Part shown: piece by piece, positions 41,931-62,102 of the stretch
How positions within the stretch are numbered: the stretch's first letter is position 1
Layout of the letters: the number at the start of each line of letters is the position of its first letter
Assembly (NCBI RefSeq): GCF_011044975.1
Contig: NZ_JAAKZV010000007.1
Coordinates: forward strand, 19,542-83,541
Source: Streptomyces coryli
Lineage (GTDB): Bacteria; Actinomycetota; Actinomycetes; Streptomycetales; Streptomycetaceae
DNA length: 64,000 nucleotides
Reading direction: 5' to 3'
Notes under the pieces: generated by a model
Told to the model about the DNA's origin: nothing
Databases searched by the model: none
What the model saw: the letters and a program-made list of their open reading frames with translations, nothing else
Program-made: the position numbers and the translations under genes

Positions 41931-41933
41931 GTT

Positions 41934-44458: not shown

Positions 44459-44519
44459 GAGCTCGGCCCCCTCCGTAAGTCATGCGGACTTCTGAATCAC
44501 TTTCGTATGCGATCCGGCT

Positions 44520-44548
44520 CCTGTCATCAACTTATCTTTCATGACAGG
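44520..44548. promoter_or_regulatory. CCTGTCAT-N13-ATGACAGG inverted repeat, operator candidate for the ABC operon
   Basis: CCTGTCAT (44520-44527) and ATGACAGG (44541-44548) are perfect complements around a 13-base AT-rich spacer. A further CCTGTCA lies at 44563-44569, inside the promoter spacer. The repeat ends four bases before the -35 box. This is the usual place for a dimeric or tetrameric regulator. Confidence 0.6.
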
Positions 44549-44552
44549 CGAC

Positions 44553-44581
44553 TTGACGCTGGCCTGTCACGAACATATTAA
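44553..44581 (+). promoter_or_regulatory. Promoter of the 13-gene operon
   Basis: TTGACG (44553-44558), a 17-base spacer and TATTAA (44576-44581) give a near-consensus housekeeping promoter. Transcription would start near 44588, leaving a leader of about 60 bases before ATG 44647 with its AAGGAGGA ribosome site. Confidence 0.65.
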
Positions 44582-44646: not shown

Positions 44647-45921
44647 ATGCGTCTTCGGCGGACGGAACGAGTGTGGGCGGGTGCGGCCGCGGCATTGCTG
44701 ACCGCCGCCCTCGCGGGGTGTGGATCCGGCGGCTTCTCCGAGGACGCCTCCTCGGACTCCGGCGACGGCGGCACCATCCGCATGCTCGTCAACATCACCC
44801 CGAACCTGACCCAGGAGTACTGGGACAAGCTGGTCAAGCCCTTCGAGGAGAAGCGCGACGGCGTCGACGTCAAGATCGAGGCGCCGACCGGCAAGGGCGT
44901 CGCGGACACCCTGCAGCAGCAGCTCGCCGCCGGCGACGCCCCGGACGTGGTCGAGACGCTCATGGTGGACGAGGCGCTGGCGCCCAAGATGCTCGAACTG
45001 ACCGACCAGCCATGGGCGAAGAAGGCGCCGCTCGCCAAGCAGGCGGCGCTGAAGGGCAAGATCTACAACGTCGGCATCGGCGAACAGGCCCAGTCCCTCG
45101 TCTACTACAACAAGGACGCCTTCGCGAAGGCCGGCATCGACCAGCCGCCCACCACCCTCGACGAACTCACCGCGGCCATGGGCAAGCTGAAGAAGGCCGG
45201 CTACCTGCCGCTGCAGACCTCGGGCGAGTTCGTCACCGGGCTGCAGCTGCTGCAGCTCTCCGACCCCTCCCTCGCCCAGCGGCACCCGCACTGGCACCGC
45301 GACATCGGCGACGGCAAGCTCAAGGCCGGCGAGTCGATGCTGCCGTATCTCGAGCTCTACGACAGCTGGCTGGAGAAGGGCTACCTCGACAAGAACGCGA
45401 TGGGCCTGAAGAACGCCGACGGCGAGACCGGCTTCCTCGGCGGCAAGTCCGCCATGTACGTGATGGGCAGCTGGTTCACCGCCTCCGAGGCCGCCGCCGA
45501 GAAGGACTTCGAGGTCGGCGTCTTCCCGGCCCCGGTCGCCGAGGGCCAGGACCATCCGGGGCCGCAGGGCGCCACGATGGCCGCCCCGTACCTGATCCTC
45601 AAGGACGCCAAGAAGCGGCAGCTCGCGCTCGACCTCGTCGAGTACCTGGTCACCGACAAGAAGGCCCTGGCAGCGCAGCTGCGCCAGGACGGCAACTTCC
45701 GCCGCGGCTTCGACCGGAAGTTCACGCCGCTGGAGAAGCAGGTGCAGCAGATCCTCGAGGCCGCCCCGGCCGGCGTGGCGCAGGGCGAGGGATACGGCGA
45801 CGACACCCTGCCGCGCGGCTTCAACGCGGCCTTCAACACCGAGGTGCAGGGGCTGTACACCGGCCGCTCGCCCAAGGACGTGGCCGAAGCGGTGGACCGC
45901 TGGGTCGAATCCCACTCCTGA
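44647..45921 (+). CDS. Sugar ABC transporter substrate-binding lipoprotein
   Basis: A 424-residue extracellular binding protein of the carbohydrate ABC importer class (family 1). The lipobox LAGC places the lipidated Cys at residue 25, followed by a Ser/Asp/Gly-rich linker. Later motifs are typical: IRMLVNITPNLTQEYWDKLVKPFEE, GDAPDVVETL, YYNKDAFAKAGIDQPPTTLDEL and GKSAMYVMGSW. It is the first gene of the operon and its start is ATG 44647, with AAGGAGGA eight bases upstream. It would capture an oligosaccharide released from pectin. The ATPase is missing from the locus; Streptomyces usually share MsiK among such importers. Confidence 0.94.
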   Translation: MRLRRTERVWAGAAAALLTAALAGCGSGGFSEDASSDSGDGGTIRMLVNITPNLTQEYWDKLVKPFEEKRDGVDVKIEAPTGKGVADTLQQQLAAGDAPDVVETLMVDEALAPKMLELTDQPWAKKAPLAKQAALKGKIYNVGIGEQAQSLVYYNKDAFAKAGIDQPPTTLDELTAAMGKLKKAGYLPLQTSGEFVTGLQLLQLSDPSLAQRHPHWHRDIGDGKLKAGESMLPYLELYDSWLEKGYLDKNAMGLKNADGETGFLGGKSAMYVMGSWFTASEAAAEKDFEVGVFPAPVAEGQDHPGPQGATMAAPYLILKDAKKRQLALDLVEYLVTDKKALAAQLRQDGNFRRGFDRKFTPLEKQVQQILEAAPAGVAQGEGYGDDTLPRGFNAAFNTEVQGLYTGRSPKDVAEAVDRWVESHS

Positions 45922-45936
45922 CCCGGAAGGCTGCCG

Positions 45937-46833: not shown

Positions 46834-47774
46834 CCCTGCACAGCGAGCCTGCCGCGCCCGAGCGGGCGGCCCCGGCGGCTACCGAGGCCGGTGCCGGCGC
46901 GATCACCCCTCGCGCGCCGCGCCGGACGCGGACCGGGCCTCCCGGGCGCCGCCGCCGATGGCTGCGGACCGGCTTCCTCACCGCCGTCGCGGTGCTGATG
47001 CTCATCCCGCTCTACGTCCTCGTCGTCAACGCCTTCAAGTCGCAGCAGGAAATCCTCACCAGTCCGTTCGGACTCCCGGCGGGCGGGCCGGACTTCTCGT
47101 ACCTGCAGAAGGTCTTCGAGAACAAGCAGTTCAACATCATGCGCGGCTACGGCGTGACCCTGCTCTTCGTCGTCTGCGTCAATGTCCTCTCCATCGCGCT
47201 CGCCGGCCCGGCCGCCTACGTCATCGCCCGCAGCGCCAAGCGCCGCTACCGCGCGCTGATGCTCTTCTTCCTGGCCGGCACCTTCATCCCCAGCCAGGTG
47301 CTGGTGATCCCGGTCGTGTACGTGCTCAAGACGCTCGGCCTCATGGGCACCATCCGCGGCTTCGTGCTCTTCGAGACGGTGCTCACCCTGCCGTTCTCGA
47401 TCTTCCTGTACGCCGGCTACATCGCCACCATCCCGCGGGAGCTGGACCAGGCGGCGGCCGTCGACGGCGCCGGACGGATCCGCACCTTCTGGCGCATCAT
47501 CTTCCCGCTGATGCGCCCGGTGGTCGCCACCATGGTCATCCTCAACACCTTCTCGGTGTGGAACGACTTCGTGAACCCGCAGATCATCCTCGGCCCCGGC
47601 AGCGGCCTCTACACCGTCACCACCGGCGTGTACGCGGCGGTCAGCCAGTACCAGACCGACTACACCGTCGTCTTCCCCACCCTCCTGGTGGCCATCGCAC
47701 CGCTGCTCGTCTTCTTCGTCTTCATGCAGCGGCACATCATCAGCGGCCTCACGGCCGGGGCGTCGAAGGGCTGA
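46830..47774 (+). CDS. Sugar ABC transporter permease (MalG type)
   Basis: A 314-residue permease with a hydrophilic N-terminal extension of about 40 residues (Ala, Pro and Arg-rich), then six helices. The EAA loop is DQAAAVDGAGRIRTFWRIIFPLMRPV. The C-terminal QRHIISGLTAGASKG is the usual MalG ending. It pairs with the MalF-type gene by an ATGA overlap, and its stop overlaps the next ATG by one base (TGATG). No ATP-binding subunit gene is present anywhere in the window. Confidence 0.95.
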   Translation: MTLHSEPAAPERAAPAATEAGAGAITPRAPRRTRTGPPGRRRRWLRTGFLTAVAVLMLIPLYVLVVNAFKSQQEILTSPFGLPAGGPDFSYLQKVFENKQFNIMRGYGVTLLFVVCVNVLSIALAGPAAYVIARSAKRRYRALMLFFLAGTFIPSQVLVIPVVYVLKTLGLMGTIRGFVLFETVLTLPFSIFLYAGYIATIPRELDQAAAVDGAGRIRTFWRIIFPLMRPVVATMVILNTFSVWNDFVNPQIILGPGSGLYTVTTGVYAAVSQYQTDYTVVFPTLLVAIAPLLVFFVFMQRHIISGLTAGASKG

Positions 47775-49705: not shown

Positions 49706-49728
49706 CCCCGACGATGTGAGGAGATTCA

Positions 49729-50496
49729 GTGGAGGACGAGACCGTGTGGGAGCTGCCGGTACGCGGCAAGCAGCCCGGCAGCGCGGACCCCGAGCTCGTC
49801 GAGCGGCTGACCGCCGTCTCGTCGGCGACCGCCTGCGCGAAGCTGCACGGGCAGGGCATCCGCCGCACGTTCATGTCCGGACCGCGCCCCCTGGCGGCCG
49901 GGCAGAAGATCGCCGGACGGGCGCGCACCCTGCAGTTCATGCCGCAGCGCGAGGACGTCGCCTCCGGCCTCGGCCAGGAGTACGTGGAGCGGCACACCGC
50001 GCTGTGGGCGGTGCTGGAGGCGGTGGAGCCCGGCGACGTGCTCGTGGTGCAGGCGTACGGCAGCAGCCACACCGGCTGCTTCGGCGACATGCTGGTGCGC
50101 TACTTCCAGCGCAAGGGCGGCGCCGGAATCGTCGTCGACGGCTGCATCCGCGACGCGCCCCGGGTGCGGGAGACCGGCCTGCCCATCTGGTCCACCGGCG
50201 TCACCCCGCACTACGCCTCCCAGGCCGAGCTGTTCCCGTGGGCCTACGACGTGCCGGTGGCCTGCGGCGGCGCCCTCGTGCTGCCCGGCGACCTGGTGGT
50301 CGCCGACGACGACGGACCCGTGGTGGTGCCCCGGCAGCGGGCCGCGGACGTGATCGCCGCCGCCCGCGAGCACGAGCAGTGGGAGCGCTTCAGCCGCAGC
50401 CGGATCGAGGAGGGGGGTGCGCTCACCGACTACTACCCGCTGACCCCCGACACCCGTGCCGAGTACGAGCGCTGGCGCGGCGACGGCGCCGGCTGA
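49729..50496 (+). CDS. RraA-like / 4-hydroxy-4-methyl-2-oxoglutarate aldolase-family protein
   Basis: A 255-residue protein of the RraA/HMG aldolase family, which includes class II (metal-dependent) aldolases and decarboxylases for 2-oxo acids with branched or tertiary alcohols. The family motifs are present: VSSATACAKLHGQG, GDVLVVQAYGSSHTGCFGDMLVRYFQRKGGAGIVVDGCIRD with the Arg-Asp pair that binds the oxaloacetate-like substrate and Mg2+, and PGDLVVADDDGPVVVPR. A GTG at 49729 follows GAGGAG by about six bases. Placed among sugar-uptake and catabolic genes, it is more likely an aldolase than an RNase regulator. It would cleave a sugar acid derivative. Confidence 0.87.
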   Translation: MEDETVWELPVRGKQPGSADPELVERLTAVSSATACAKLHGQGIRRTFMSGPRPLAAGQKIAGRARTLQFMPQREDVASGLGQEYVERHTALWAVLEAVEPGDVLVVQAYGSSHTGCFGDMLVRYFQRKGGAGIVVDGCIRDAPRVRETGLPIWSTGVTPHYASQAELFPWAYDVPVACGGALVLPGDLVVADDDGPVVVPRQRAADVIAAAREHEQWERFSRSRIEEGGALTDYYPLTPDTRAEYERWRGDGAG

Positions 50497-50535
50497 CCCC
50501 CAGACACCCGCACGCCCGACGAGCAAGGAGATCGT

Positions 50536-52410
50536 GTGTTCCGCAAGTACCGCAGAACCCGGACCCCGTTACTGCTGGCGGCCGCCGGCGCGCTGCTGCT
50601 CGGCGGCGCCACCCTGCCCCAGGCGAACAGCGCCGACGGCTGCGACCCGAAGGAGTTCTTCGTCGCACCCGACGGCAGCGACCGCGGCGAGGGCACCAAG
50701 GACGACGCCTGGCGGACCGTCGCGCACGCCCGCGACCAGCTCCGCGCGGACGGCCTGACCAAGGACATGGCCTGCGACGTCGTCGTGAACCTGCGGGCGG
50801 GCGACTACCCGGTGGACAAGGCCGTCGAGTTCGACGAGCGCGACTCCGGGTCCGGCGGCCACCAGGTGGTCTACCGCAGCTACGACGGGCCCGGCAAGGC
50901 CCGTATCACCGGGGCGAAGCCGGTCTCCGGCTGGCAGGAGTACAAGGACGGCATCTACCGGGCCGACGTCGGCAAGGACGCCTCCTTCTACACCCTCTTC
51001 GAGGACGGCAAGCGCGCCACCACCGCCCGCTTCCCCAACCGTCGCACCGACACCGAGTGGGCCCCGTATCTGATCTCCACCATCCCCGAGCCGGAGAAAG
51101 AGGCGGTGCGCCGCTGGCTGTGGGCCAAGCCCGGGGACATGGACCCGAAGTGGGACCCGGAGGACCTGGCCAAGGCCACGGTGACGATCTGGTCCGGCGG
51201 CAGCTGGAGCTGGTTCACGGACACCGTGCCGATCAAGGACGTGAACCTCGAGGAGGGCCAGATCTCCCTCGAGTACCAGACCCGCTACGCCATGATGAAC
51301 AGCCGCAGCGGATCCCGGTACTTCCTCCAGGACTCCCTCGCCTTCCTCGACCAGGCCGGTGAGTACTACCTGGACAAGGAGAAGGGCCAGCTCTACTACA
51401 AGCCCCGCGGCGACATCAAGGACGCCAAGGTGCTGGCGCCCACGACCACGAAGCTGCTCGACATCGCCGGCAGCAGCGAGCGGCACCGGGTGCGCGACAT
51501 CACCTTCGACGGCCTCGCGCTCCAGTACAGCGACTACCTGGAGTGGTACCGGTTCGGCTGGGTCGATGACGGCGACTCCGGCTTCGAGCACAAGTACCCG
51601 ATGTACGACCGGCAGATCGAGATGCACCGCAATCGCTTCGGTGCGGTGACGGTGACCAACAGCAAGGACATCACACTGACCGGGATGCACATCTCCGACA
51701 CCGGCTATCACGCCGTCTACGCGCTCTTCGCCAATGAGGGCCTGACGGTCAAGAACAGCCTGCTGGAGAACATCGGCGCCGACGGCATCAAGGTCGAGGG
51801 CCCGTATCCGGGGGAGGGCGACACCTCCAAGGGCCACCTGTTCACCAACAACTACATCTCCCACTTCGGGGAGCTGGTGCCGGGCGACGCCGCCGGCGTC
51901 GAGCTGATGGACACCGGACACAACACCGTCAGCCACAGCGTCATCGAGCACTCCGCCCGCTACGGCATCAGCCTCGAGGTGCGCCCGGAGGTCAAGGCGG
52001 AGGACAACTACGCCCGCGAGAACACCTTCGAGTACCTGCGCATCAACGAAGCCGGCCTGGACAGCGGCGACATGGGCGCCTTCTACACGTACGGCGTCGA
52101 GAACGAGGAGCCGCACCCGGTCGACAACCACGTCCGCCAGGTCGTCATCGGCGACGTCATTCCCGACCCCTCGATGCCGGACAGCGGCACCCGCGGCGTG
52201 CACATGGACGCCGGCGGCTGCGGCTTCAGCTTCACCGACATCGAGGTCGGCAAGGTCACCGACGACAAGTACCAGAGCTATCAGTGCAACCAGGTCAAGA
52301 ACGCTAACTGGGAGGACGGCTTCGACGCCTCGCGGATGGAGTACGACAAGATCGGTGTGACCGACGCCTTCCCGTACCCGAAGCCGAAGTCCGCCAAGGA
52401 CGGGGAGTGA
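50536..52410 (+). CDS. Secreted parallel beta-helix enzyme (possibly GH141-like)
   Basis: A 624-residue secreted protein with a Sec signal (RKYRRTRTPLLLAAAGALLL, cleavage near NSADG). The mature protein opens FFVAPDGSDRGEGTKDDAWRT and continues VYRSYDGPGKARITGAKPVSGW, the pattern of large right-handed beta-helix glycosidases such as GH141. Coil repeats run through the second half (ITLTGMHISDTGYHAVYALFANEGLTVKNSLLENIGADGIKVEG in pieces). Asp-rich positions in ISDTGYHAVY and GADGIKVEG could be catalytic. The family assignment is a recollection of pattern rather than a certainty; lyase families with the same fold are the alternative. GTG 50536 has AAGGAG upstream. Confidence 0.7.
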   Translation: MFRKYRRTRTPLLLAAAGALLLGGATLPQANSADGCDPKEFFVAPDGSDRGEGTKDDAWRTVAHARDQLRADGLTKDMACDVVVNLRAGDYPVDKAVEFDERDSGSGGHQVVYRSYDGPGKARITGAKPVSGWQEYKDGIYRADVGKDASFYTLFEDGKRATTARFPNRRTDTEWAPYLISTIPEPEKEAVRRWLWAKPGDMDPKWDPEDLAKATVTIWSGGSWSWFTDTVPIKDVNLEEGQISLEYQTRYAMMNSRSGSRYFLQDSLAFLDQAGEYYLDKEKGQLYYKPRGDIKDAKVLAPTTTKLLDIAGSSERHRVRDITFDGLALQYSDYLEWYRFGWVDDGDSGFEHKYPMYDRQIEMHRNRFGAVTVTNSKDITLTGMHISDTGYHAVYALFANEGLTVKNSLLENIGADGIKVEGPYPGEGDTSKGHLFTNNYISHFGELVPGDAAGVELMDTGHNTVSHSVIEHSARYGISLEVRPEVKAEDNYARENTFEYLRINEAGLDSGDMGAFYTYGVENEEPHPVDNHVRQVVIGDVIPDPSMPDSGTRGVHMDAGGCGFSFTDIEVGKVTDDKYQSYQCNQVKNANWEDGFDASRMEYDKIGVTDAFPYPKPKSAKDGE

Positions 52411-52417
52411 CCTCGGA

Positions 52418-53188
52418 ATGAGCGGGCGCATCCGCTGCGAGACGCAGGGGCCGGTCGCGGTCGTGACCCTCGACCGGCCGGAGAAGCTCAACGCCCTCAC
52501 CCCAAAGATGGCGGACGAGCTGCGCCGCACCCTGGCCGGCCTGGACGCGGACGCCGCCGTGCGAGCCGTCGTCCTGGCCGGCGCGGGGGAGCGGGCCTTC
52601 TGTGCCGGCAGCGACATCGCGGGTCTCGACGCGTACGAGACCCCGTGGGCCTTCCGCAACCGGCTCGACTACGGGGATGTGGTGCGGGAGTTGCGCACGC
52701 CGCTCATCGCCGCCGTCGGGGGCCACGCCCTCGGCGGCGGGCTGGAGCTGGCGCTGTCCTGCGACATCCGGATCGCGGGGGAGTCGGCGCGGTTCGCCGC
52801 CCCGGAGATCAAGCTGGGCTGGATCGGCGGCAGCGGGCAGGCGGCGCTGCTGGCGCACAGCATCGGCGCGTCCAACGCCGCGCTGATGCTGCTCACCGGC
52901 GACCCGATCGATGCGGCGCAGGCGCTGGCCTGGGGTCTGGTCAGCCGCGTCGTCCCGGACGCCGAGCTGCTGCCGGAGGCGGTCGCGCTGGCCGGGCGGA
53001 TCGCCGCCCGGGCGCCGATCGCCGCGCAGACCGCCAAGGCCAATCTGCGGGCGGCGCACAGCATGCCGCTGCAGCAGGCCATCCAGTACGAGCGCGACCT
53101 GCAGACGGTGTGCTTCGCCACGGAGGACGCCGCCGAGGGCCGGGCCGCCTTCGCCGAGCGGCGCGAGCCGCGGTTCACCGGCCGCTGA
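52418..53188 (+). CDS. Enoyl-CoA hydratase/isomerase-family protein
   Basis: A 256-residue crotonase-superfamily protein. The family blocks are VAVVTLDRPEKLNALTPKM, the first oxyanion-hole segment GERAFCAGSDIAGLD, the second AVGGHALGGGLELALSCDIRIAG, and APEIKLGWIGGSGQAALLAHSIG with the catalytic acidic position region. It would act on a CoA thioester in the cytosol as hydratase, dehydratase or isomerase. It starts seven bases after the beta-helix gene and precedes a family III CoA-transferase by 36 bases. That pairing strongly implies a CoA-activated intermediate, unexpected in a pectin locus. Confidence 0.9.
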   Translation: MSGRIRCETQGPVAVVTLDRPEKLNALTPKMADELRRTLAGLDADAAVRAVVLAGAGERAFCAGSDIAGLDAYETPWAFRNRLDYGDVVRELRTPLIAAVGGHALGGGLELALSCDIRIAGESARFAAPEIKLGWIGGSGQAALLAHSIGASNAALMLLTGDPIDAAQALAWGLVSRVVPDAELLPEAVALAGRIAARAPIAAQTAKANLRAAHSMPLQQAIQYERDLQTVCFATEDAAEGRAAFAERREPRFTGR

Positions 53189-53224
53189 GCCACTGCTGAG
53201 CCACTACGGAGGGACAGACAGATC

Positions 53225-54433
53225 ATGGGAATCCTGGACGGCTACCGGGTGGTCGATCTGTCGATCGCCATGGCGGGGCCGCTGGCGGCGATGCGGCTCG
53301 GCGACCTCGGCGCCGACGTGGTGAAGGTCGAGCCGCCGGGCGGGGAGTGGCAGCGCCGCGCCCCCGCCGGCGGTGCCACCGGCACCGAGCTGAACGCCTC
53401 CTTCCTCTCGCTCAACCGCAACAAGCGCAGCCTCGCCGCCGACCTCAAGACGAGCGAAGGACGCGAGGTGGTGCGGGACCTGGTCCGCGGCGCGGACGTG
53501 TTCCTGCAGAACTACCGGCCCGGGGTCGCCGAGCGCCTCGGCATGGACTACGCGGCGGTCCGGGAGGTCAACCCCGGCATCGTCTACGTCTCCATCTCCG
53601 GCTACGGCGACAGCGGCCCGTACGCGGACCGGCCCGGGCAGGATCTGCTGCTGCAGGCCATGTCCGGAGCCATGTACAGCGTCGGGCGGGAGTCGGACCC
53701 GCCCGCCCCGGCGGGGACCTACGCGGTCGACGCCATCACCGCGTACTCCGCCTTCGAAGGCGCGCTGGCCGCCCTGCTGCACCGGGAGCGCACCGGCGAG
53801 GGCCAGCTGGTGAAGGTGAACATGCTGGACGCCGCCATCGCGGTGCAGATGCAGGAGCTGTCGGTGTACACCGTCGGCGGCGTCCCGCAGCGACGCGGCG
53901 CCGAGCCGCACGGGCACACCTATATCCGCGCCCCGTACGGGGTGTTCACCACCAAGGACGGCCATCTCGCGCTGGCGATGCCGCCGCTCGACGCCCTCGG
54001 CGAGGCGCTCGGGCTGCCCGAACTGGCCGCGTACGACACGGACGTGGACGGCCACGGCAGGCGCGACGAGATCACCGCGCTGGTACGGGCCCGGCTGCCG
54101 CGGCACACCACCGCCGAGTGGCTGGAGCTGTTCGCCGAGCGCGGCATCTGGGCCGGGCCGGTGCATACGTACGCCGATGTCGTCGCCGATCCGCAGGTGC
54201 GGCACAACGGCTCGTTCGTCACCTACCGGCACCCGGTGGAGGGCGAGGTGACCACGCCCGGCTTCCCGTACCGCTTCAGCGCCACCCCGCCGGAGGTGCG
54301 CCGCGGCGCCCCGCTGGCCGGTGAGCACACCCGGGAAGTCCTCGGCGAACTGGGTTATCCGGAGCAGCGGGTGGCGGCGCTGCTCGCCGAGGGCGCCATC
54401 GCCGCCCGGAACCGGGAGGAAGAGATGTCATGA
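53225..54433 (+). CDS. Family III CoA-transferase (CaiB/BaiF)
   Basis: A 402-residue CoA-transferase that would move CoA from a donor (for example succinyl-CoA) to a free acid. It opens with GILDGYRVVDLSIAMAGPLAAMRLGDLGADVVKVEPPGG, the family signature. The nucleophilic aspartate is probably that in LQNYRPGVAERLGMDYAAV or its neighbour, and VSISGYGDSGPYADRPGQDLLLQAMSG is diagnostic. ATG 53228 is close to the annotated ATG; GGAG lies upstream. Its stop overlaps the next ATG by four bases. Together with the enoyl-CoA hydratase it forms an acid-activation module of unknown substrate. Confidence 0.92.
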   Translation: MGILDGYRVVDLSIAMAGPLAAMRLGDLGADVVKVEPPGGEWQRRAPAGGATGTELNASFLSLNRNKRSLAADLKTSEGREVVRDLVRGADVFLQNYRPGVAERLGMDYAAVREVNPGIVYVSISGYGDSGPYADRPGQDLLLQAMSGAMYSVGRESDPPAPAGTYAVDAITAYSAFEGALAALLHRERTGEGQLVKVNMLDAAIAVQMQELSVYTVGGVPQRRGAEPHGHTYIRAPYGVFTTKDGHLALAMPPLDALGEALGLPELAAYDTDVDGHGRRDEITALVRARLPRHTTAEWLELFAERGIWAGPVHTYADVVADPQVRHNGSFVTYRHPVEGEVTTPGFPYRFSATPPEVRRGAPLAGEHTREVLGELGYPEQRVAALLAEGAIAARNREEEMS

Positions 54434-55623
54434 CCGCGACGACGACGGAACCACCCCGCGCCACCGCGGAGCTGCGCGGGCTGACCTGGGACCACCCCCG
54501 CGGCTACGCGCCGCTCGAGGAACTCGCCCGGCTCGACGCCTCCCTGCCGCCCGGCTGCGAGACGGTCGGCCGGCCGCTGCGCTGGGACCGGCAGCCGCTC
54601 TCCGGCTTCGAGTCCACCCCCCTCACCGCCCTCGCCCCCGACTACGACCTCCTCGTCGTGGACCACCCGGGCCTCGGCGCCGCCGTCGAGGCGGACTGCC
54701 TGATGCCGCTGGAAGAGCTCTTCGGCCCCGCCGAGCTGCGCGGCTGGCGGGAGCGCAGCGTCGGCGCCAGCTTCGCCAGTTACGTGCTCGACGGCCGCAC
54801 CTGGGCGCTGCCGCTGGACGCCGCCGCACAGGTCGCCGCCGCGCGTCCCGACCTGATGGCGGGGCATCCGCTGCCGCGCACCTGGGCGGAGGTGCGCGAC
54901 CTGCCGGTGCCGGTCGCACTCTGCCTGGGCGGCCCGCACGCCTTCCTCACCTTCTGCTCGCTCGTCCTGGCCCAGGGCGCGGAGCCGGCCACGGACGGCG
55001 ACCGGCTCGTCTCCCGGGAGGCCGCGCTGCCCGCGCTCGACCTCATGGCGGTACTCGCCGACCGCACCCCGGCGCCGCTGCGCGACGCGAACCCGATCGG
55101 GCTGCTGCGCGCGATGGCGGCGGCCGGCGGGCCCGCGTACTGCCCGCTGGTGTACGGCTATGTCACCTACACCCGCGCCGGGCCGTATCCGCTGGCCTTC
55201 GCCGACGCCCCGACGTGGCGGCCGGGCGGCCCCGTGGGCAGCGTGCTCGGCGGCGCCGGACTCGCCGTCTCCCGCCGCCGCACCGACGACCTCGGCACCC
55301 GCGGCGCGGTCCGCGATCACCTGCGCCGGCTGCTGGCGGACCCGGTGCAGCGCGAGCTGTTCCCGGTCACCGGCGGCCAGCCCGCGGCCCGCGCCGCCTG
55401 GACCGACGCCTGGACCAACGAGCGGTGGGGCGGCTTCTACCGCGCCACCCTCGCCACCGTCGAGGCCGCCTGGGTGCGGCCGCGGTGGCCCGGCTATCCG
55501 GAATTCCAGGAGGCGGCCTCCCGACTGCTGCGCGCGGGGCTGGCCGAGGGCCGCCCGCACCGGGCGCTGCTAGACGCCCTCGATGACCACTACCGCACCT
55601 ACCGGGAGAGGAGCACTCCGTGA
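54430..55623 (+). CDS. Signal-less solute-binding-protein-like protein
   Basis: A 397-residue protein whose fold pattern is that of a sugar ABC solute-binding protein: LLVVDHPGLGAAVEADCLMPLEELFGP, VLDGRTWALPLDAAAQVAA, PRTWAEVRDL and YGYVTYTRAGPYPLAF. It has no signal peptide or lipobox, and the first 30 residues (MTATTTEPPRATAELRGLTW) are soluble. It is therefore probably cytosolic, where a binding protein would act as a sensor, chaperone or substrate carrier. It overlaps the CoA-transferase gene by four bases and the SDR gene by four, so it belongs to a coupled trio. Function is unknown. Confidence 0.8.
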   Translation: MTATTTEPPRATAELRGLTWDHPRGYAPLEELARLDASLPPGCETVGRPLRWDRQPLSGFESTPLTALAPDYDLLVVDHPGLGAAVEADCLMPLEELFGPAELRGWRERSVGASFASYVLDGRTWALPLDAAAQVAAARPDLMAGHPLPRTWAEVRDLPVPVALCLGGPHAFLTFCSLVLAQGAEPATDGDRLVSREAALPALDLMAVLADRTPAPLRDANPIGLLRAMAAAGGPAYCPLVYGYVTYTRAGPYPLAFADAPTWRPGGPVGSVLGGAGLAVSRRRTDDLGTRGAVRDHLRRLLADPVQRELFPVTGGQPAARAAWTDAWTNERWGGFYRATLATVEAAWVRPRWPGYPEFQEAASRLLRAGLAEGRPHRALLDALDDHYRTYRERSTP

Positions 55624-56357
55624 GCACCGCAGTAGTGACCGGTGCGGCAGGCGGCCTCGGCCGAGCCATCAGCCGCCGGCTGGCCGCCGACGGGCACGCC
55701 GTCGCCCTGCTCGACGTCGAAGGCCCGGCGCTGGAGCAGGCCGTCAAGGACCTCACCGAGGCGGGCGGCACCGCGCTGCCGCTCGCCGCCGATCTGCGCG
55801 ACGCCGACGCCGTCGAGGCCGCCTTCGCCCGCGCCGGCGAGGAGTTGGGCACCGTCGGCATCCTGGTCAACAACGCCGCGATCTACCCGTCCCGGCCGTT
55901 CCTCGAGGTGCCGCTCGCCGAGTACGACGACGTGCACGCGGTCAACCAGCGCGGCTACTGGCTCTGCGCCCAGACCGCCGCCCGCGCCATGACGGAGGCC
56001 GGTGGCGGCGCGATCGTCAACGTCGCCTCCATCACCATGAGCGGCGGCTGGGCCGACCTCGCCGCCTACGTAGCCACCAAGGGCGCCGCCGCCGCCCTCA
56101 CCCGCGCCCTGGCCCGCGAGCTCGGCCCGCACGGCATCCGCGTCAACTGCGTGGCGCCCGGCGCCTTCCCCACCGCCGCCGAGGAGATCCATCCCGACCG
56201 GGCGGCGTACGAGGCCCGCATCCTGGACCACCAGGCGCTCAAGCGCCGCGGCACGCCCGACGAGCTGGCCGCGGTGGTGGCCTTTCTGGCCGGTTCCGAC
56301 GCCGCGTTCGTCACCGGGCAGACGCTCAACGTCGACGGCGGGTGGGTGATGTCATGA
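55620..56357 (+). CDS. SDR-family oxidoreductase
   Basis: A 245-residue classical short-chain dehydrogenase. The NAD(P) loop is VTGAAGGLGRAI (TGxxxGxG), the NNA motif is in ILVNNAAIYP, the active-site Ser is in VNVASITMSGG, and the YxxxK is YVATKGAAA. The Asp in LLDVEG suggests NAD preference. C-terminal VDGGWVMS is typical. The gene starts at GTG 55620, overlapping the previous stop, and overlaps the DUF4432 gene by four bases. It would oxidise a sugar, sugar acid or hydroxyacyl derivative. Confidence 0.94.
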   Translation: MSTAVVTGAAGGLGRAISRRLAADGHAVALLDVEGPALEQAVKDLTEAGGTALPLAADLRDADAVEAAFARAGEELGTVGILVNNAAIYPSRPFLEVPLAEYDDVHAVNQRGYWLCAQTAARAMTEAGGGAIVNVASITMSGGWADLAAYVATKGAAAALTRALARELGPHGIRVNCVAPGAFPTAAEEIHPDRAAYEARILDHQALKRRGTPDELAAVVAFLAGSDAAFVTGQTLNVDGGWVMS

Positions 56358-57463
56358 AGATCCACGGACAGGAGCTCGGTCCCCGCGACCTGGCCGCCCG
56401 TGCCGGTGAGACGGCCGCCGCCGGGGGCGTCCGCCTGGTCACACTCGCTGACGGCGCCGAACGCGGCATCCGCACCCTGGAGTTCCGCACCGGCAGCGGC
56501 CTGGCCTTCGACGTCCTGGTCGACCGGTGCATGGACATCGGTGCCGCGGAACACGCCGGGCAGGCCTTCGGCTGGCGCTCGCGCACCGGCTTCCGGCACC
56601 CGGCGCTGCACGAGCACGCCGACGAGGAGGGCCTGTCCTGGCTGCGCTCCTTCTCCGGCCTGACCGTGACAGGGGGCCTCGACCACACCCTCTTCGGCGG
56701 CGAGGTGGACGCGACCGGCTACCGCTACCCACCGCGCCCGTCCGTACGGCACGGCCTGCACGGCCGGGTCGCCAACCTGCCCGCCCGGCTGAAGGGTTAC
56801 GGCGAGCACTGGGACGGCGACGCCTGTGTGCTGTGGGCCGAGGGACAGGTCCGGCAGGCCGCGGTCTTCGCCGAGAACCTGACCCTGACCCGCCGCATCG
56901 AGGCCGATCTGGGCGGCGATGAGATCCGGCTCACCGACACGGTCACCAACCCCGGCTTCGACCCGATGCCGCACATGTTCCTCTACCACATCAACCTCGG
57001 CTGGCCGCTGCTCGACGAGGGCAGCCGCTTCCTCGCCCCGGTCGCCAAGACGCTGTGGCACTCCGACAGCGTCACCGACCAGTGCGCCGACCACCGCATG
57101 CTGCCGGCCCCCCGGCCGGGCTTCGTCGAGCAGGTCTACGAGCACGAGCTGCGCGAGGTCGCCCCGGGCCGTACCGGAGCGGCCGTGGTCAACGACCGGC
57201 TGGAACTGGCCGTGAGCGTCGACTGGGAGCGGTCCGCGTTCCCCTGCTTCTTCCAGTGGCTCAACCTCCGGGCCGGCGACTACGCGATCGGCCTCGAGCC
57301 CTCCACCCACCACGTCGCCGGGGACGCGGCCGCCCGCGCCGACGACTCCATGATCTGGCTCGGTCCGGGCGAGTCCCGGACGTACCGCACCCGCTTCCGC
57401 GTGCACCGCGGAGCCGACGCCCTCGCCGCCCTCGAGACACAGCTGGAGCCGAGCGATGCCTGA
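56354..57463 (+). CDS. DUF4432 (aldose epimerase-fold) protein
   Basis: A 369-residue protein of the DUF4432 family, a galactose mutarotase-like beta-sandwich. Markers include [74 protein letters not shown] and the C-terminal GLEPSTHHV. Such proteins interconvert anomers of free sugars, and in this locus the enzyme probably prepares the sugar for the SDR. It is coupled to the SDR gene (four bases) and to GH95 (eight bases). Confidence 0.85.
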
Positions 57464-59861
57464 GTTGTCCAGACGCCACGTACTGGCGGCCGCCGGAGCC
57501 GGCGCCGCGGCGACCGCGCTGCCCACCGGCGCGTACGCATTGCCCGGCGCGTCGCGGCGCTCCGACCCCAACCCGATGCGGCTGTGGTACACCGCCCCCG
57601 CCGCCGAGTGGCTGGAGGCGCTGCCGGTCGGCAATGGCCGCCTCGGCGCGATGGTGTTCGGCCGCACCGACACGGAGCGGCTGCAGCTGAACGAGGACAG
57701 CCTGTGGGCCGGAGGGCCGAACGACTACGCCCAGCCGGACGCCGCCCGCCACCTGGCGGAGGTCCGCCGCCTGGTGGTCGAGGAGAAGTGGTACCAGGCG
57801 CAGCTGCTGGCCGAGGAGCACTTCCTCGGCACCCCCTCGGAGCAGGCCGCCTACCAGGTCCTCGGCGACCTCGAACTCGCCCTCGCGGGCGACGGCGAGA
57901 CCACCGGCTACGAGCGCGAACTGGACCTGGAGACGGCCGTCACCCGCGTCACCTACACCCGCGGCGGCGTACGCCACACCCGCGAGGTCTTCGCCAGCGG
58001 TCCGGACCAGGTCCTGGTCGTACGGCTGACCGCCGATACCCCGGGCAGCGTGGGCTTCACCGCCCGCTTCAGCACCCCGCAGAAGGCCTCCGCCGCGACC
58101 GTCGACGACCGCACCATCGCGCTCGACGGCGTCGGCGGCGACTGGCAGGGCCTCGAGGGCAAGGTGCGCTTCCGGGCGCTGGCCCGCGCGGTTCCCGAGG
58201 GCGGGCAGGTGCGTACCGAGGGCGGCGAGCTGACCGTGACCGGCGCCGACGCCGTCACCCTCATCGTCTCCATGGCCACCAGCTACCGCGACTACCTGGA
58301 CGTCTCGGCGGACGAGGCCGCCCGCGCCCGCCGCCACCTGGAGCCGGCCGCGCGGATGCCGTACGAGCTGCTGCGCCGCCGCCATGTGGCCGACCACCGC
58401 CGCCTGTTCAGCCGGGTCGGCATCGACCTCGGCACCTCCGATCGCACCGCCCTGCCCACCAACGAGCGCGTCCCGCTCTTCAAGGACGGCGGCGATCCGC
58501 AGCTGGCCGCGCTGTACTTCCAGTACGGCCGCTATCTGCTCGCCTCCTGCTCCCGCAGCCCCGGCCAGGCCGCGAACCTGCAGGGCCTGTGGAACGAGAG
58601 CATGACCCCCAACTGGGAGTCCAAGTACACGATCAACATCAACTTCGAGATGAACTACTGGCCGGCCGGGCCCGCCAATCTCGCCGAGTGCTGGGAGCCC
58701 GCCGCGGACATGATCCACGAGCTGGCCAGATCCGGCGCCCGCACCGCCAAGGCCCTCTACGACGCCCCGGGCTGGGTCGCGCACCACAACACCGACGGCT
58801 GGCGCGGCACCGCGCCCGTCGACCACGCCTTCTACGGCATGTGGCCCACCGGCGGCGCCTGGCTGTGCCTGCTGCTGTGGGACCACTACCGCTTCACCGG
58901 CGATACGGGCGTCCTCAGCCGCAACTACCCGGTCCTGAAGGGTGCGATCGACTTCTTCCTGGACTTCCTGGTCGAGGACGCGAAGACCGGCTACCTGGTC
59001 ACCAACCCCTCGCACTCGCCCGAGGTCGGCCACCACGAGGACGAGGGCGAGAACGTCAGCATCTGCGCCGGGCCCACCATGGACATGCAGCTGCTGCGCG
59101 ATCTCTTCGACGCTTTCCGTTCTGCCGCCGTGGTCCTCGACCGCGACCCCGGCCTGGCCGCCCGGGTCAGCGAGGTCCGCGACCGGCTCGCCCCGAACCA
59201 GGTCGGCTACGCGGGCCAGCTCCAGGAGTGGCTGGAGGACTGGGAGGAGGCGGCGCTGGTCAAGCACCGGCACGTATCGCAGCTCTACGGGCTCTTCCCC
59301 AGCGCCCAGATCACCCCCAGGAAGACTCCGGAGCTGGCCGCGGCCGCACGCAGGACGCTGGAGCTGCGCGGCACCTCGGGCACCGGCTGGTCGCTCGCCT
59401 GGAAGATCAATTGGTACGCCCGGCTGCTCGACGCCGACCTCGCGTACCAGCGGCTGAGCGACCTCCTCACCCCGGCCCGTACCGCCCCCAACCTCTTCGA
59501 CCTGCACCCGCCGTTCCAGATCGACGGCAACTTCGGCGGCGTCTCCGGGATCACCGAGATGCTGCTGCAGAGCCACGCCGGCGAGATCGAGCTGCTGCCC
59601 GCCCTGCCGGACGCCTGGCCGGACGGCTCCTTCCGCGGGTTGCGCGCCCGCGACGGCTTCGAGATCGACCTGGAGTGGAAGGCCGGGAAGGTGGTGCACG
59701 CCGCGGTGCGCTCCCTGCTCGGCCACCCCATCCGCCTGCGCACCCCGCACCCCGTCGACATCGAGGGTGCCACCGCGGAACGCCCCGAGGAGCACGTGGT
59801 GTCCTTCGCCACCCGCCCAGGGGCCACCTATCACGTGAGAGCCGCGCAGACCCGTCACTGA
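57456..59861 (+). CDS. Secreted GH95 alpha-L-fucosidase/galactosidase
   Basis: An 801-residue glycoside hydrolase with a twin-arginine-type signal ([18 protein letters not shown]). It has the standard GH95 order: an N-terminal beta-sandwich ([29 protein letters not shown]), then an (alpha/alpha)6 barrel with [18 protein letters not shown] (the catalytic Asn pair N-x-N), [18 protein letters not shown] with the acid glutamate, and [14 protein letters not shown] with the catalytic Asp. GH95 enzymes cleave terminal alpha-1,2-L-fucose or alpha-L-galactose by inversion. In rhamnogalacturonan II degradation the latter has been reported. Its start overlaps the DUF4432 stop by eight bases. Confidence 0.93.
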
Positions 59862-59882
59862 CTCACCAAGGAGCAGGCGAAC

Positions 59883-62102
59883 GTGACTGACGCAAACGGA
59901 ACTGCCGCACCGCACACACCACTCGGCCGCCGGGCCTTCGTGGCCGGCTCGGGAGCCGTGCTGGGCGCGGCCGCGCTGGCCGGCTGGCCGCCGCACACCG
60001 CATACGCCGCCCCCGCGCCGGAGACCCGGGCCGCGATCCCGGCGTTCCCCGGCGCCGAGGGCGGCGGCAAGTTCGCCACCGGGGGCCGCGACGGCGAGGT
60101 CTACGAGGTCACCACCCTCGACGACTCCGGCCCCGGCTCGCTGCGCGAGGCGGTCTCGGCCGACAACCGCACGGTCGTCTTCCGGGTCTCCGGCACCATC
60201 CAGCTCAAGGGCGGCCTGGACATCACCGGCTCGAACCTCACCATCGCGGGGCAGACCGCACCCGGCGGCGGCATCTGCGTGGCCGGCAACGAGACGGAGA
60301 TCAAGGGCAGCAACATCATCCTGCGCTATCTGCGCTTCCGCGGCGGTGACGAACTGGGCACGCCCATCGACACGTTCGGGATGGAAGGCCAGGAGAACGT
60401 CATCATCGACCACTGCTCCATCAGCTGGGCGGTGGACGAGAACTGTTCCCCGTACAAGAACAAGAACGTCACCCTGCAGTGGTGCATCATCTCCGAGCCG
60501 CTGACCATGTCGGCGCACGAGAAGGGACGGCACGGCTTCGGCGGCATCTGGGGCGGCGACAACGTCTCTTACCACCATAACCTGCTGGTCCACAACGGCG
60601 GCCGCAACCCGCGGTTCGGCTTCGAGGAGGGCCTGAACCAGCTGGCCGACTCCCGCAACAACGTGATTTACAACTACGGCTACACCTCCTGCTACGGCGG
60701 CGAGTGGGCCGAGGGCATCAACATCGTCGGCAACTACTACAAGCCGGGTCCCAACACCCTGGAGGACATCGCGCCGGTCATCGTCAGCCCGGACCGCTTC
60801 GGCGCCTGGTACGTCGCCGGGAACGTCATCGAGGGCCACGACGAGGTCACCCAGGACAACCGCGAGGGCATCAAGCTGGGCGTCGGCGGCATCACGCTGC
60901 TCGACAAGCCGGCCGACCTGGCCCATCCGCTGCCGGAGCAGAGCGCGAAGGAGGCGTACGAGGCGGTGCTGGCCGGCGCGGGCGCGATCCTGCCGCGACG
61001 GGACGCGATCGACGCGCGGATCGTCGCCGATGTGCGCGGCGGTACGGGACGGATGATCAACTCCCAGCGGGAGGTGGGCGGCTGGGTGCCGCTGGTCTCC
61101 ACGAAGCCGCCCGCCGACTCCGACCACGACGGCGTCCCGGACGACTGGACGGGGGAGGGGGAGGGCGGATACACGCGGCTGGAGACGTATCTGAACTCGA
61201 TCGAGCGCACCGGCAAGGACAACCCCACGGTGACCCTCAAGTCCCCGTCGCCCGACCAGGTCTTCACGACCGACGTCGCCTTCGAGGTCGAGGCCTCGGC
61301 GGCCGCCGGCGAGACCATCGCCACCGTCGAGTACTACGCGGGCGACAAGAAGCTGGGCGAAACCACGAAGGCGCCGCACACCTTCACCTGGACCGGCGTC
61401 GCGGACGGCACCCACTACCTCACCGCCCGCGCCACCGACTCCGCCGGCACCGCAACCGCGTCCACCTGCACCCCGGTCCACGTCAACCACACGACGGCGA
61501 CCACGCCATGGCGCCTGAAGGACATCGGCAAAGTGCCCATCGCCGGTGCGGCGGCGCTGGACGGCGGGACCATCACGCTCAAGGGCTCCGGCAAGGTCGT
61601 CGGCCGCGAGGACGCCTGCAGCTTCCTCTACCAGCCGGTCAGCGCGCCGGAGGACGAGGTCGTGGAGATCATCGCCCGGCTCGACTCCCTGCCGCCGGTC
61701 TACGAAGGCGTCATGGCGGGCCTGATGATCCGCGAGAACCTCACCCCCGACTCCGCGTTCCTGATGCTCGGCATCACCTATCTCGACGGCGGCCTGAAGG
61801 CGCGCGGCTTCCGGATCGGGCGGTACGGCACCGAGACCTCCGACAGCGTCTATCCGTGGGACGGGGCGGAGAACGAGCACCTGGGCGACCTGCCGTACTA
61901 CCTGCGGATCACCAAGCGCGGCGCCGAGATCCAGGGGCATGTCTCCTCGGACGGGCTGAACTGGGGCAGCCACGTCGTCTACGAGCGCATCCCCATGGTC
62001 GACCGCGTCTACCTGGGGCTGGCCGTGGACGCCAACAAGGAGGCCAACGCCGTGGCGCACTACGCCACGGCGGCCTTCACCCACGTGAAGATCAATAAGT
62101 AG
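59883..62102 (+). CDS. Secreted pectate lyase (PL1-like) with Ig-like and C-terminal domains
   Basis: A 739-residue secreted pectate lyase. The signal is twin-arginine-like (GRRAFVAGSGAVLGAAAL). The beta-helix starts PAFPGAEGGGKFATGG and contains TLDDSGPGSLREAV, GSNLTIAGQTAPGGG, IIDHCSISWAVDENCS and YHHNLLVHNGGRNPRFG with the catalytic basic residues. Residues ~440-540 form an Ig-like domain (VTLKSPSPDQVFTTD; THYLTARATDSAG). The last ~190 residues form a beta-sandwich of the type that binds carbohydrate (IIARLDSLPPVYEGVMAGLM). It cleaves deesterified polygalacturonate. It is the last gene of the operon, ending 11 bases inside the convergent GH127. Confidence 0.9.
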   Translation: MTDANGTAAPHTPLGRRAFVAGSGAVLGAAALAGWPPHTAYAAPAPETRAAIPAFPGAEGGGKFATGGRDGEVYEVTTLDDSGPGSLREAVSADNRTVVFRVSGTIQLKGGLDITGSNLTIAGQTAPGGGICVAGNETEIKGSNIILRYLRFRGGDELGTPIDTFGMEGQENVIIDHCSISWAVDENCSPYKNKNVTLQWCIISEPLTMSAHEKGRHGFGGIWGGDNVSYHHNLLVHNGGRNPRFGFEEGLNQLADSRNNVIYNYGYTSCYGGEWAEGINIVGNYYKPGPNTLEDIAPVIVSPDRFGAWYVAGNVIEGHDEVTQDNREGIKLGVGGITLLDKPADLAHPLPEQSAKEAYEAVLAGAGAILPRRDAIDARIVADVRGGTGRMINSQREVGGWVPLVSTKPPADSDHDGVPDDWTGEGEGGYTRLETYLNSIERTGKDNPTVTLKSPSPDQVFTTDVAFEVEASAAAGETIATVEYYAGDKKLGETTKAPHTFTWTGVADGTHYLTARATDSAGTATASTCTPVHVNHTTATTPWRLKDIGKVPIAGAAALDGGTITLKGSGKVVGREDACSFLYQPVSAPEDEVVEIIARLDSLPPVYEGVMAGLMIRENLTPDSAFLMLGITYLDGGLKARGFRIGRYGTETSDSVYPWDGAENEHLGDLPYYLRITKRGAEIQGHVSSDGLNWGSHVVYERIPMVDRVYLGLAVDANKEANAVAHYATAAFTHVKINK

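What the first reader, a model, noticed from the sequence alone, without database searches (positions are those of the whole stretch)
44647..62102. A 13-gene, tightly packed pectin/rhamnogalacturonan operon that mixes secreted enzymes, an importer and a CoA/aldolase module
Gaps between the 13 genes run from overlaps of 1-8 bases to a maximum of 39 bases, so they form one transcript. The order is import (binding protein, two permeases), an unknown protein, an RraA-type aldolase, a secreted beta-helix enzyme, then enoyl-CoA hydratase, CoA-transferase, a signal-less binding-like protein, SDR and DUF4432, then GH95 and pectate lyase. I know no pectin pathway that needs a CoA-transferase plus enoyl-CoA hydratase. 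Inference: the module may handle an unusual sugar acid by CoA activation followed by dehydration and aldol cleavage.
Basis: partly seen in the sequence, partly recalled or inferred. Interest (0 to 1): 0.8.

Follow-up and report, generated by a model that had tools for sequence, protein, structure and literature searches.

The report
CoA-dependent sugar-acid operon with cytosolic binding protein
This soil-bacterium operon joins enzymes that strip sugars from plant pectin to a widespread, apparently undescribed set of genes that probably breaks down the released sugar acid by attaching it to coenzyme A, helped by a sugar-binding protein that stays inside the cell.

Summary
The 13-gene block is real and its spacing is as described. 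The odd core (family III CoA-transferase g8, signal-less binding protein g9, enoyl-CoA hydratase g7, SDR g10, DUF4432 g11) is a recurrent module. Of 80 genome loci chosen by g9 similarity alone, 77 carry a family III CoA-transferase (75 within 300 bp of g9), 74 an enoyl-CoA hydratase, 66 an SDR and 54 DUF4432. Three of the six without the hydratase have a MaoC match instead. In 148 actinomycete genomes g9 and the transferase co-occur far beyond chance. g9 is modelled with high confidence as a sugar solute-binding protein but has no room for a signal peptide.

[quoted passage not shown] Neighbouring GH95, GH141-like and lactonase-like genes point to L-fucose or a similar 6-deoxy sugar.

Best reading: CoA activation of an aldonate, dehydration of the CoA ester, then aldol cleavage, working like the carnitine CaiB/CaiD shuttle. 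The chemistry is inferred; nothing was assayed. I found no description in the library searched.

The parts
44647..45921 (+). g1: sugar solute-binding protein of an ABC importer
   Evidence: PF01547 103.5 bits
45937..46833 (+). g2: ABC importer permease
   Evidence: PF00528 73.3 bits
46830..47774 (+). g3: ABC importer permease
   Evidence: PF00528 69.7 bits
47774..49705 (+). g4: 643-aa protein of unknown family; homologues in Streptomyces, Nonomuraea, haloarchaeal and Asticcacaulis plasmid records
   Evidence: no significant Pfam or NCBIfam family, no PDB hit at E<=1; 17 plasmid records; present in 6 of 80 loci
49729..50496 (+). g5: RraA-type protein, probable class II pyruvate aldolase acting on a 2-keto-3-deoxy sugar acid
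   Evidence: PF03737 121.1 bits; Arg-Asp aligned to that of the solved HMG/CHA aldolase 3NOJ (Arg-123/Asp-124 in PMC5065237, passages)
50536..52410 (+). g6: right-handed beta-helix enzyme, GH141-like, probably secreted
   Evidence: GH141_M 28.5 bits vs cut-off 27; PDB 9rx2 E 1e-22 and BT_1002 E 6e-9; secretion judged by eye
52418..53188 (+). g7: enoyl-CoA hydratase (crotonase), proposed to dehydrate the sugar-acyl-CoA
   Evidence: PF00378 224.8 bits; Glu110 and Glu130 aligned to Glu of solved hydratases
53225..54433 (+). g8: family III CoA-transferase, proposed to load the sugar acid with CoA
   Evidence: PF02515 374.3 bits; Asp169 aligned to Asp of a solved succinate-HMG CoA-transferase and invariant in 13 of 13 aligned proteins
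54430..55623 (+). g9: cytosolic protein with a sugar solute-binding fold, core of the module, proposed substrate-binding/delivery part
55620..56357 (+). g10: SDR oxidoreductase, probable sugar 1-dehydrogenase (or 2-keto-3-deoxy-acid 4-dehydrogenase)
   Evidence: PF13561 209.2 bits; just over the cut-off of NCBIfam subfamily 'glucose 1-dehydrogenase' PRK07231 (218.5 vs 215); solved relatives generic
56354..57463 (+). g11: DUF4432, aldose-1-epimerase-like, probable mutarotase
   Evidence: PF14486 309.9 bits; solved relative 3ty1 'hypothetical aldose 1-epimerase' E 1e-22
57456..59861 (+). g12: TAT-signal GH95 glycoside hydrolase (alpha-L-fucosidase / alpha-L-galactosidase family; activities recalled)
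   Evidence: GH95 catalytic domain 556.8 bits and TAT_signal 23.8 bits
59883..62102 (+). g13: protein with a pectate-lyase-like look plus Big_7 domain
   Evidence: PF17957 52.9 bits; beta-helix only E 1.2; relatives in L016, L017 at 60 and 66%
43301..44458 (-). divergent regulator: IS630-type HTH region fused to GntR/FCD
   Evidence: Pfam and NCBIfam; nearly whole-length relatives at 60-70% in L017, L026, L028, L038
44519..44573 (.). three copies of a 12-bp element (TTCATGACAGGC-like), candidate operator between the regulator and g1
   Evidence: 3 of the 5 window matches with up to 2 mismatches lie here; the total of 5 is not significant (mean 2.53, 7 of 100 shuffles reach it), the clustering is the point
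34960..35781 (-). Amidohydro_2 protein, probable aldonolactonase outside the block
   Evidence: PF04909 148.6 bits; 52% identical to the copy next to GH95 in L018

Best explanation
The operon is a route for one sugar freed from a pectic or fucosylated plant polymer. g6, g12 and g13 act outside to release it and g1-g3 import it. g11 (mutarotase) and g10 (dehydrogenase) turn it, with a lactonase such as the one at 34960-35781, into an aldonic acid. The family III CoA-transferase (g8) loads this acid with CoA, and the crotonase (g7) removes water across C2-C3, giving a 2-keto-3-deoxy acyl-CoA. The transferase moves the CoA from this product to the next aldonate, so CoA acts catalytically as in the carnitine CaiB/CaiD shuttle. 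The free 2-keto-3-deoxy acid is cleaved by the RraA-type aldolase (g5) to pyruvate and an aldehyde; in many other loci an FAH protein like the 2-keto-3-deoxy-acid dehydratases would take this step. The cytosolic binding protein g9 holds the sugar acid and gives the system its substrate specificity. The set thus stands in for the usual IlvD/EDD or enolase-type aldonate dehydratase. SHOWN: gene content, conservation, key residues, g9 predicted fold and missing signal. INFERRED: all reactions, the direction (dehydration), CoA recycling, the role of g9, and the sugar (most likely a 6-deoxy sugar such as L-fucose).
For: (1) Of 80 loci chosen by g9 alone, 77 have the transferase, 74 the hydratase (70 at >=150 bits), 66 SDR, 54 DUF4432. 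(2) Of 148 actinomycete genomes, 8 have g9, 9 the transferase (E<=1e-90), 6 both: hypergeometric 1.7e-7, 2.1e-6 without the centre genome G004, which has both by choice. In each of the 8 g9 genomes at least one g9 has a family III transferase within about 2.3 kb; 9 of 10 g9 places were examined. (3) Of the 6 loci lacking the crotonase, 3 have a match to MaoC, another hydratase family of a different fold (fold recalled): L034 42%, L030 36%, L060 29%; annotated plasmid loci L007, L008, L010, L011 have MaoC genes too. This argues for water addition or removal on a CoA ester. (4) Asp169 of g8 and both Glu of g7 are present. (5) No IlvD/EDD dehydratase in 80 of 80 loci nor in the window, with 5 queries that all find each other's loci; no enolase-family hit in 65 of 80. 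(6) FAH at >=45% identity in 36 of 80 or RraA at >=50% in 4 of 80. The FAH type matches solved 2-keto-3-deoxy-D-arabinonate dehydratase at E 4e-19; FAH-type enzymes of this sort make alpha-ketoglutaric semialdehyde (PMC6336799, PMC7374468; passages); aldehyde dehydrogenases in 12-13 of 80. (7) g5 keeps the aldolase Arg-Asp. [quoted passage not shown] that these enzymes can be of the AKR and Amidohydro_2 families is recalled. (9) In L016/L017 the local transferase is shortened and looser (pN/pS 0.69) while g9 stays constrained (0.43; GH95 0.37) and a full-length transferase with its own g9 exists elsewhere in each genome.
Against: 15 of 80 loci carry an enolase-superfamily protein that could itself be the aldonate dehydratase, so the module may do something additional there. 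40 of 80 have neither a strong FAH nor a strong RraA match. L016, L017 and L018 keep g9 with no local ECH or MaoC match, and L016/L017 also lack SDR and DUF4432 in the stretch held. UxaA/GarD-type and DHDPS-type dehydratases and thiolases were not searched in the loci. Two of the three MaoC matches are weak. The SDR could act after dehydration rather than before. No lactonase was recognised inside the 13-gene block. At the place of rat hydratase Gln162 (named with Glu144 in PMC9007349) g7 has Ala by my reading of the alignment; one solved 3-hydroxypropionyl-CoA dehydratase also lacks the Gln there. No solved relative identifies the sugar, and the neighbours differ: GH95/GH141-like in some loci, GH106 in L008 and weakly in L036, Gfo/Idh and isomerase in 20 of 80 each.
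Confidence: 0.45

Rival explanations
1. The CoA enzymes act after C-C cleavage, on a short product acid (lactate, glycerate or glycolate): CoA loading and dehydration of the C2-C3 fragment, while the sugar acid itself is dehydrated by an unlinked ordinary dehydratase.
For: Some loci carry lactate-type enzymes: FMN_dh in 5 of 80, 2-Hacid_dh in 14 of 80, dld in L008. Solved relatives of g7 include 3-hydroxypropionyl-CoA dehydratase. 30 of 30 genomes searched have IlvD/EDD-family genes, though IlvD itself is a housekeeping enzyme.
Against: g9 has the fold of sugar- and oligosaccharide-binding proteins, an odd partner for lactate. Lactate-type enzymes are in a minority of loci. No consumer of a product CoA ester was noticed, though none was sought.
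Confidence: 0.15
2. A beta-oxidation-like route: the sugar acid is loaded with CoA, the SDR oxidises C3 and the chain is split at C2-C3, as proposed for deoxyribonyl-CoA in Klebsiella.
For: Precedent for a CoA-bound sugar acid with CoA-synthetase, hydroxyacyl-CoA dehydrogenase, thiolase and CoA-transferase (PMC6365646, passages). The module has an SDR, and its solved relatives include 3-oxoacyl reductases.
Against: None of the 13 window genes matches a thiolase or beta-keto-acid cleavage enzyme; such enzymes were not searched for in the relatives. The usual partner is a hydratase with both Glu, with MaoC instead in some loci. FAH/RraA partners fit 2-keto-3-deoxy acids.
Confidence: 0.12
3. g9 is not a delivery or specificity part but a cytosolic sensor, or an enzyme in its own right such as a lactonase or isomerase, on a solute-binding fold. 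(This concerns g9 only and can hold together with the best explanation.)
For: Strictly conserved polar or aromatic residues (among them W20, H22, R24, E61, D78, H79, S117, D130, Q134, W152, H170, Q307, Q317, R350 in 50 of 50 rows). Constraint on g9 even where the local transferase is shortened.
Against: Nearly always next to the CoA-transferase (75 of 80 within 300 bp); many loci already have LacI-type regulators (30 of 80). g9 and transferase trees are correlated (Mantel r 0.70, 0 of 999 permutations), though shared ancestry alone can give this.
Confidence: 0.3
4. Ordinary acyl-CoA genes that happen to sit in a polysaccharide operon, without a common pathway.
For: Family III CoA-transferases and crotonases are very common (25 transferase hits at E<=1e-40 in one genome).
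Against: The same set recurs in Actinomycetota, Pseudomonadota and an Acidobacteria MAG, with 4-bp overlaps in the window.
Confidence: 0.04

Closest known systems
Carnitine CoA shuttle CaiB/CaiD (family III CoA-transferase plus crotonase; recalled)
   Same: Same two enzyme families; dehydration of a beta-hydroxy acid as its CoA ester; CoA passed from product to substrate.
   Different: g8 scores 129.8 bits against the NCBIfam carnitine model, cut-off 413. Here the pair sits with sugar enzymes and with g9, which I do not know from the carnitine system. Works like, not a member.
Oxidative L-fucose/L-rhamnose and pentose routes via 2-keto-3-deoxy acids (PMC6336799 and PMC11378808, passages)
   Same: Mutarotase-like, dehydrogenase-like and lactonase-like genes, and FAH-type or aldolase-type handling of a 2-keto-3-deoxy acid.
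   Different: No IlvD/EDD dehydratase in 80 of 80 loci and no enolase-type hit in 65 of 80; a CoA-transferase, a hydratase and a cytosolic binding protein are there instead.
Proposed deoxyribonyl-CoA route of Klebsiella michiganensis (PMC6365646, passages)
   Same: A sugar acid is handled as a CoA ester.
   Different: CoA-synthetase, dehydrogenase and thiolase; the passages seen name no crotonase or MaoC step and no binding protein.
Sugar solute-binding proteins of ABC importers (1eu8, MalE3, SmoF)
   Different: No signal peptide, co-encoded with a CoA-transferase, its own set of invariant residues; 17% identity to 1eu8.
HMG/CHA aldolase / RraA family (3NOJ; PMC5065237, passages)
   Same: g5 keeps the Arg-Asp of the active site.
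   Different: Below the NCBIfam cut-off of the aldolase model (113.2 vs 304.5); the substrate must differ.
Itaconate/mesaconate-type CoA-transferase plus hydratase pathways (recalled)
   Same: Family III transferase followed by a hydratase.
   Different: Non-sugar substrates; NCBIfam mesaconate CoA-transferase model 226.7 vs cut-off 700.

Membership tests
Family III CoA-transferase (g8) | PF02515 domain over the whole protein and catalytic Asp | tested here: met
   374.3 bits over residues 4-369; Asp169 aligned with solved relatives and invariant in 13 of 13; that this Asp is catalytic is recalled
Crotonase hydratase (g7) | PF00378 domain and the two active-site Glu | tested here: met
   224.8 bits; Glu110 and Glu130 aligned; the first Glu (rat 144) is named in PMC9007349, the second as catalytic is recalled; rat Gln162 is Ala here
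Carnitine CaiB | Score above the curated cut-off of the L-carnitine CoA-transferase model | tested here: not met
   129.8 bits vs 413
ABC importer solute-binding protein (g9) | Sugar-binding-protein fold | tested here: met
ABC importer solute-binding protein (g9) | Signal peptide or lipobox for export | tested here: not met
   In 13 of 13 aligned proteins the conserved TW-HPRG start of the fold lies 0-18 residues after the start codon; judged from the alignment, no signal predictor was run
Class II HMG/CHA-type aldolase (g5) | Metal/pyruvate-binding Arg-Asp of 3NOJ | tested here: met
   alignment, residues named in PMC5065237
Class II HMG/CHA-type aldolase (g5) | Score above the curated cut-off of the ligK/PcmE aldolase model | tested here: not met
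   113.2 bits vs 304.5
GH95 (g12) | GH95 catalytic domain above cut-off | tested here: met
   556.8 bits vs 27; catalytic residues not checked
GH141 (g6) | Full GH141 beta-helix with insertion domain | tested here: inconclusive
   GH141_M 28.5 vs 27 bits, only 37 of 156 positions; BT_1002 E 6e-9
Pectate lyase (g13) | Pectate lyase family domain | tested here: inconclusive
   only Big_7 above its cut-off; beta-helix E 1.2
Oxidative L-fucose pathway | Dehydrogenase, lactonase and fuconate dehydratase together | tested here: inconclusive
   SDR in the operon, Amidohydro_2 at 34960-35781; no IlvD/EDD hit and no enolase-type hit in the window
Substrate identity (L-fucose or other 6-deoxy sugar) | Growth or binding on the sugar | not testable with these tools
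   needs assays

The most novel reading that the evidence does not exclude
g8, g9 and g7 are a CoA-dependent aldonate dehydration system used by many Actinomycetota and Pseudomonadota: a cytosolic sugar-binding protein, recruited from an ABC importer, presents the sugar acid to a generic CoA-transferase, so that swapping g9 swaps the substrate while transferase and hydratase can be shared between loci. This would be both a new route of sugar-acid catabolism and a new job for the solute-binding fold.
Probability: 0.33. Interest if true: 0.82.

Novelty: new variant of a known kind. Interest (0 to 1): 0.68.

Why it matters
In annotated plasmids it is named piecemeal: 'CoA transferase', 'carbohydrate ABC transporter substrate-binding protein', 'enoyl-CoA hydratase/isomerase family protein'. 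If the reading holds, it is a further way, besides IlvD/EDD and enolase-type dehydratases, to turn aldonates into 2-keto-3-deoxy acids, it explains binding proteins without signal peptides, and it makes growth and fitness predictions for plant-associated bacteria testable.

Tried and rejected
Ordinary IlvD/EDD dehydratase in the locus: two of my five queries (from L098, L099) had been read in a wrong frame; repeated with all five in the right frame and a positive control: still no hit in the 80 loci, the plasmid loci L001-L013, L101-L110 or the window. Enolase-type: found in 15 of 80 loci, not in the window, so kept as a caveat. Shortened g8 of L016/L017: I first read it as loss of Asp169; an alignment shows that both lack about 20 to 33 conserved residues just before it, that L016 has Glu and L017 still Asp in that column, so loss of activity is likely but not shown. 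Klebsiella-type thiolase route: no such gene among the 13. DUF4432 literature: 2 papers, judged irrelevant from the listing. Aldonyl-CoA names: 0 papers; five-term search: 0; S. meliloti locus tags: 0. The listings (16 papers; 20 of 119 shown; 20 of 49 shown; 1 paper) showed no title on this module. These cover only the open-licence library, without preprints. RNase-regulator reading of g5 (RraAS1/RraAS2 of S. coelicolor are called RNase ES inhibitors, PMC10126417 passages): not tested; g5's closest solved relative is 5x15 'putative transferase', whose organism I did not see. Structure of g4: six hand-ins met a full queue, so g4 stays unknown. Foldseek search of g9: queue full.

Full report
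Observation. The 13 genes are there at the stated place and spacing: intergenic distances run from -8 to +39 bases. Pfam confirms importer (g1-g3), RraA-like (g5), beta-helix with a weak GH141 insertion-domain match (g6), crotonase (g7), CoA_transf_3 (g8), SDR (g10), DUF4432 (g11) and GH95 with a TAT signal (g12). g4 has no significant family and no solved relative. g9 is below the Pfam cut-off for binding proteins (19.5 bits vs 26). g13 has only a Big_7 domain above its cut-off, so its pectate-lyase name is unproven. Single transcription is inferred from spacing; simple promoter and terminator scans say nothing beyond chance.

A recurrent module. g9 was used as the probe, because it is the least ordinary protein. 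In plasmids, 145 records hold a relative. Of the records fetched, 12 had annotation at g9 (a thirteenth had none): a CoA-transferase is annotated in all 12, next to g9 in 11 and with two genes between in L007. The other neighbours are often sugar importers, SDR, DUF4432 ('aldose 1-epimerase family'), enoyl-CoA hydratase or MaoC, and FAH-family proteins. These 80 give: CoA-transferase 77 (75 within 300 bp of g9), ECH 74 (70 at >=150 bits), SDR 66, DUF4432 54, FAH 42 (36 at >=45% identity), RraA 6 (4 at >=50%), ABC permease 42, LacI 30, Gfo/Idh 20, sugar isomerase 20. Enolase-family proteins are in 14 (one query) or 15 (two queries). IlvD/EDD: 0 of 80; two of the five queries were in a wrong frame, and the repeat with five correct queries, which all find each other's loci, again gave none. 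Nine of 80 showed no carbohydrate-type neighbour by these queries. The counts rest on tblastn with chosen queries within about 10 kb on either side, so absences are soft.

Independent sample. In 148 genomes of the class of G004 (G004, the genome of L016, included), g9 (E<=1e-60) is in 8 and the transferase (E<=1e-90) in 9; 6 have both, hypergeometric P 1.7e-7, or 2.1e-6 when G004 is left out. The two g9-only genomes proved to have an adjacent transferase of 42-43% identity, under the cut. The three transferase-only genomes have 45-46% hits and were not examined further. Nine of 10 g9 places were looked at. Three of these loci (L101-L103) have a family I CoA-transferase between g9 and the family III enzyme.

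Exceptions are informative. L018, L063 and L074 lack a local transferase, but each genome has one at 63-66% elsewhere. In L016 and L017, the closest relatives of the window's g9, the local g8 is a shortened reading frame: about 33 (L016) and 20 (L017) conserved residues just before Asp169 are missing, and the Asp169 column holds Glu in L016 and Asp in L017. ECH, SDR and DUF4432 matches are absent there. A second, full-length transferase at 62-64% sits with another g9, ECH, SDR and DUF4432 elsewhere in both genomes. Between L016 and L017, g9 is about as constrained as GH95 (pN/pS 0.43 and 0.37) while g8 is looser (0.69). I read this as g9 being tied to the local substrate and the transferase being shareable; decay in progress is the alternative.

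What the parts do. g8 keeps the family Asp and g7 both Glu. In three of the six loci without a crotonase match there is a MaoC match, although two of these are weak (29% and 36%); clearer MaoC neighbours are annotated in plasmids L007, L008, L010 and L011. Two hydratase families in one slot argue that water is added to or removed from a CoA ester. The FAH partner's nearest solved proteins are an FAH-family protein (9kkt, E 1e-113) and 2-keto-3-deoxy-D-arabinonate dehydratase (E 4e-19); bacterial FAH-type enzymes of this sort dehydrate 2-keto-3-deoxypentonates to alpha-ketoglutaric semialdehyde (PMC6336799, PMC7374468; passages). The window has an RraA-type protein instead, with the Arg-Asp of HMG/CHA aldolase; that aldolase splits 4-hydroxy-2-oxo acids, which a 2-keto-3-deoxy sugar acid also is. 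g10 just passes the NCBIfam 'glucose 1-dehydrogenase' subfamily cut-off (218.5 vs 215). FAH and RraA partners thus both expect a 2-keto-3-deoxy acid, and the step that would make it from an aldonate has no ordinary dehydratase in 65 of 80 loci.

Which sugar. GH95 and a GH141-like enzyme are in the operon. L018 (Actinoallomurus) has aldo-keto reductase, Amidohydro_2 and GH95 in line after g9-SDR-DUF4432. The window has an Amidohydro_2 protein at 34960-35781, 52% identical. The second module of S. hoynatensis (L107) has rhamnose-mutarotase-like, SDR and Amidohydro_2 genes. L058 has an FMN-dependent dehydrogenase, a family that includes lactate dehydrogenases (recalled). A strong GH106 rhamnosidase match lies next to the CoA-transferase in L008, a weak one in L036. 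This suggests 6-deoxy sugars, L-fucose first, but the FAH/aldehyde dehydrogenase pairs of other loci fit pentoses. It is inference.

Known or new. It works like the carnitine CaiB/CaiD shuttle (recalled) but fails the carnitine model's cut-off. A CoA-bound sugar acid was proposed before for deoxyribonate (PMC6365646, passages), with other enzymes. Searches listed no paper on this module; two showed only 20 papers each, and subscription literature and preprints were not searched. Verdict: observation confirmed, interpretation right in outline, chemistry unproven, function new as far as I could see.

Noticed in passing
window 43301-44458 (-): Regulator with an IS630-transposase-type HTH region fused to a GntR/FCD regulator; relatives of nearly full length at 60-70% in L017, L026, L028, L038, so the fusion is probably not a calling error.
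   Followed up: partly
window 44519-44573: Three copies of a 12-bp TTCATGACAGGC-like element in alternating orientation in the divergent promoter; a CCTGTCAT element also lies in the matching gap of L017.
   Followed up: partly
L101-L103: g9 followed by a family I CoA-transferase (PF01144) and then the family III one, with an SDR: two CoA-transferases in one operon.
   Followed up: partly
L016:2081-2977, L017:9027-9962: Open but shortened transferase reading frames lacking conserved residues just before Asp169, next to constrained g9.
   Followed up: partly
window 47774-49705 and L014, L015: g4 family without a Pfam model, shared by Streptomyces, haloarchaeal plasmids and Asticcacaulis.
   Followed up: partly
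window 35793-37718 (-): One reading frame matching a Gfo/Idh/MocA oxidoreductase and a GDSL esterase, an apparent fusion.
   Followed up: no
window 37808-43625 and 62092-63798: Pectinesterase, Gfo/Idh oxidoreductase, GH28 and GH127 genes flank the block, so it lies in a larger pectin region.
   Followed up: no
window 49729-50496: g5's closest solved relative is 5x15 'putative transferase' (E 5e-121); two Streptomyces RraA-like proteins are called RNase ES inhibitors in the literature, so some may be aldolases named otherwise.
   Followed up: no
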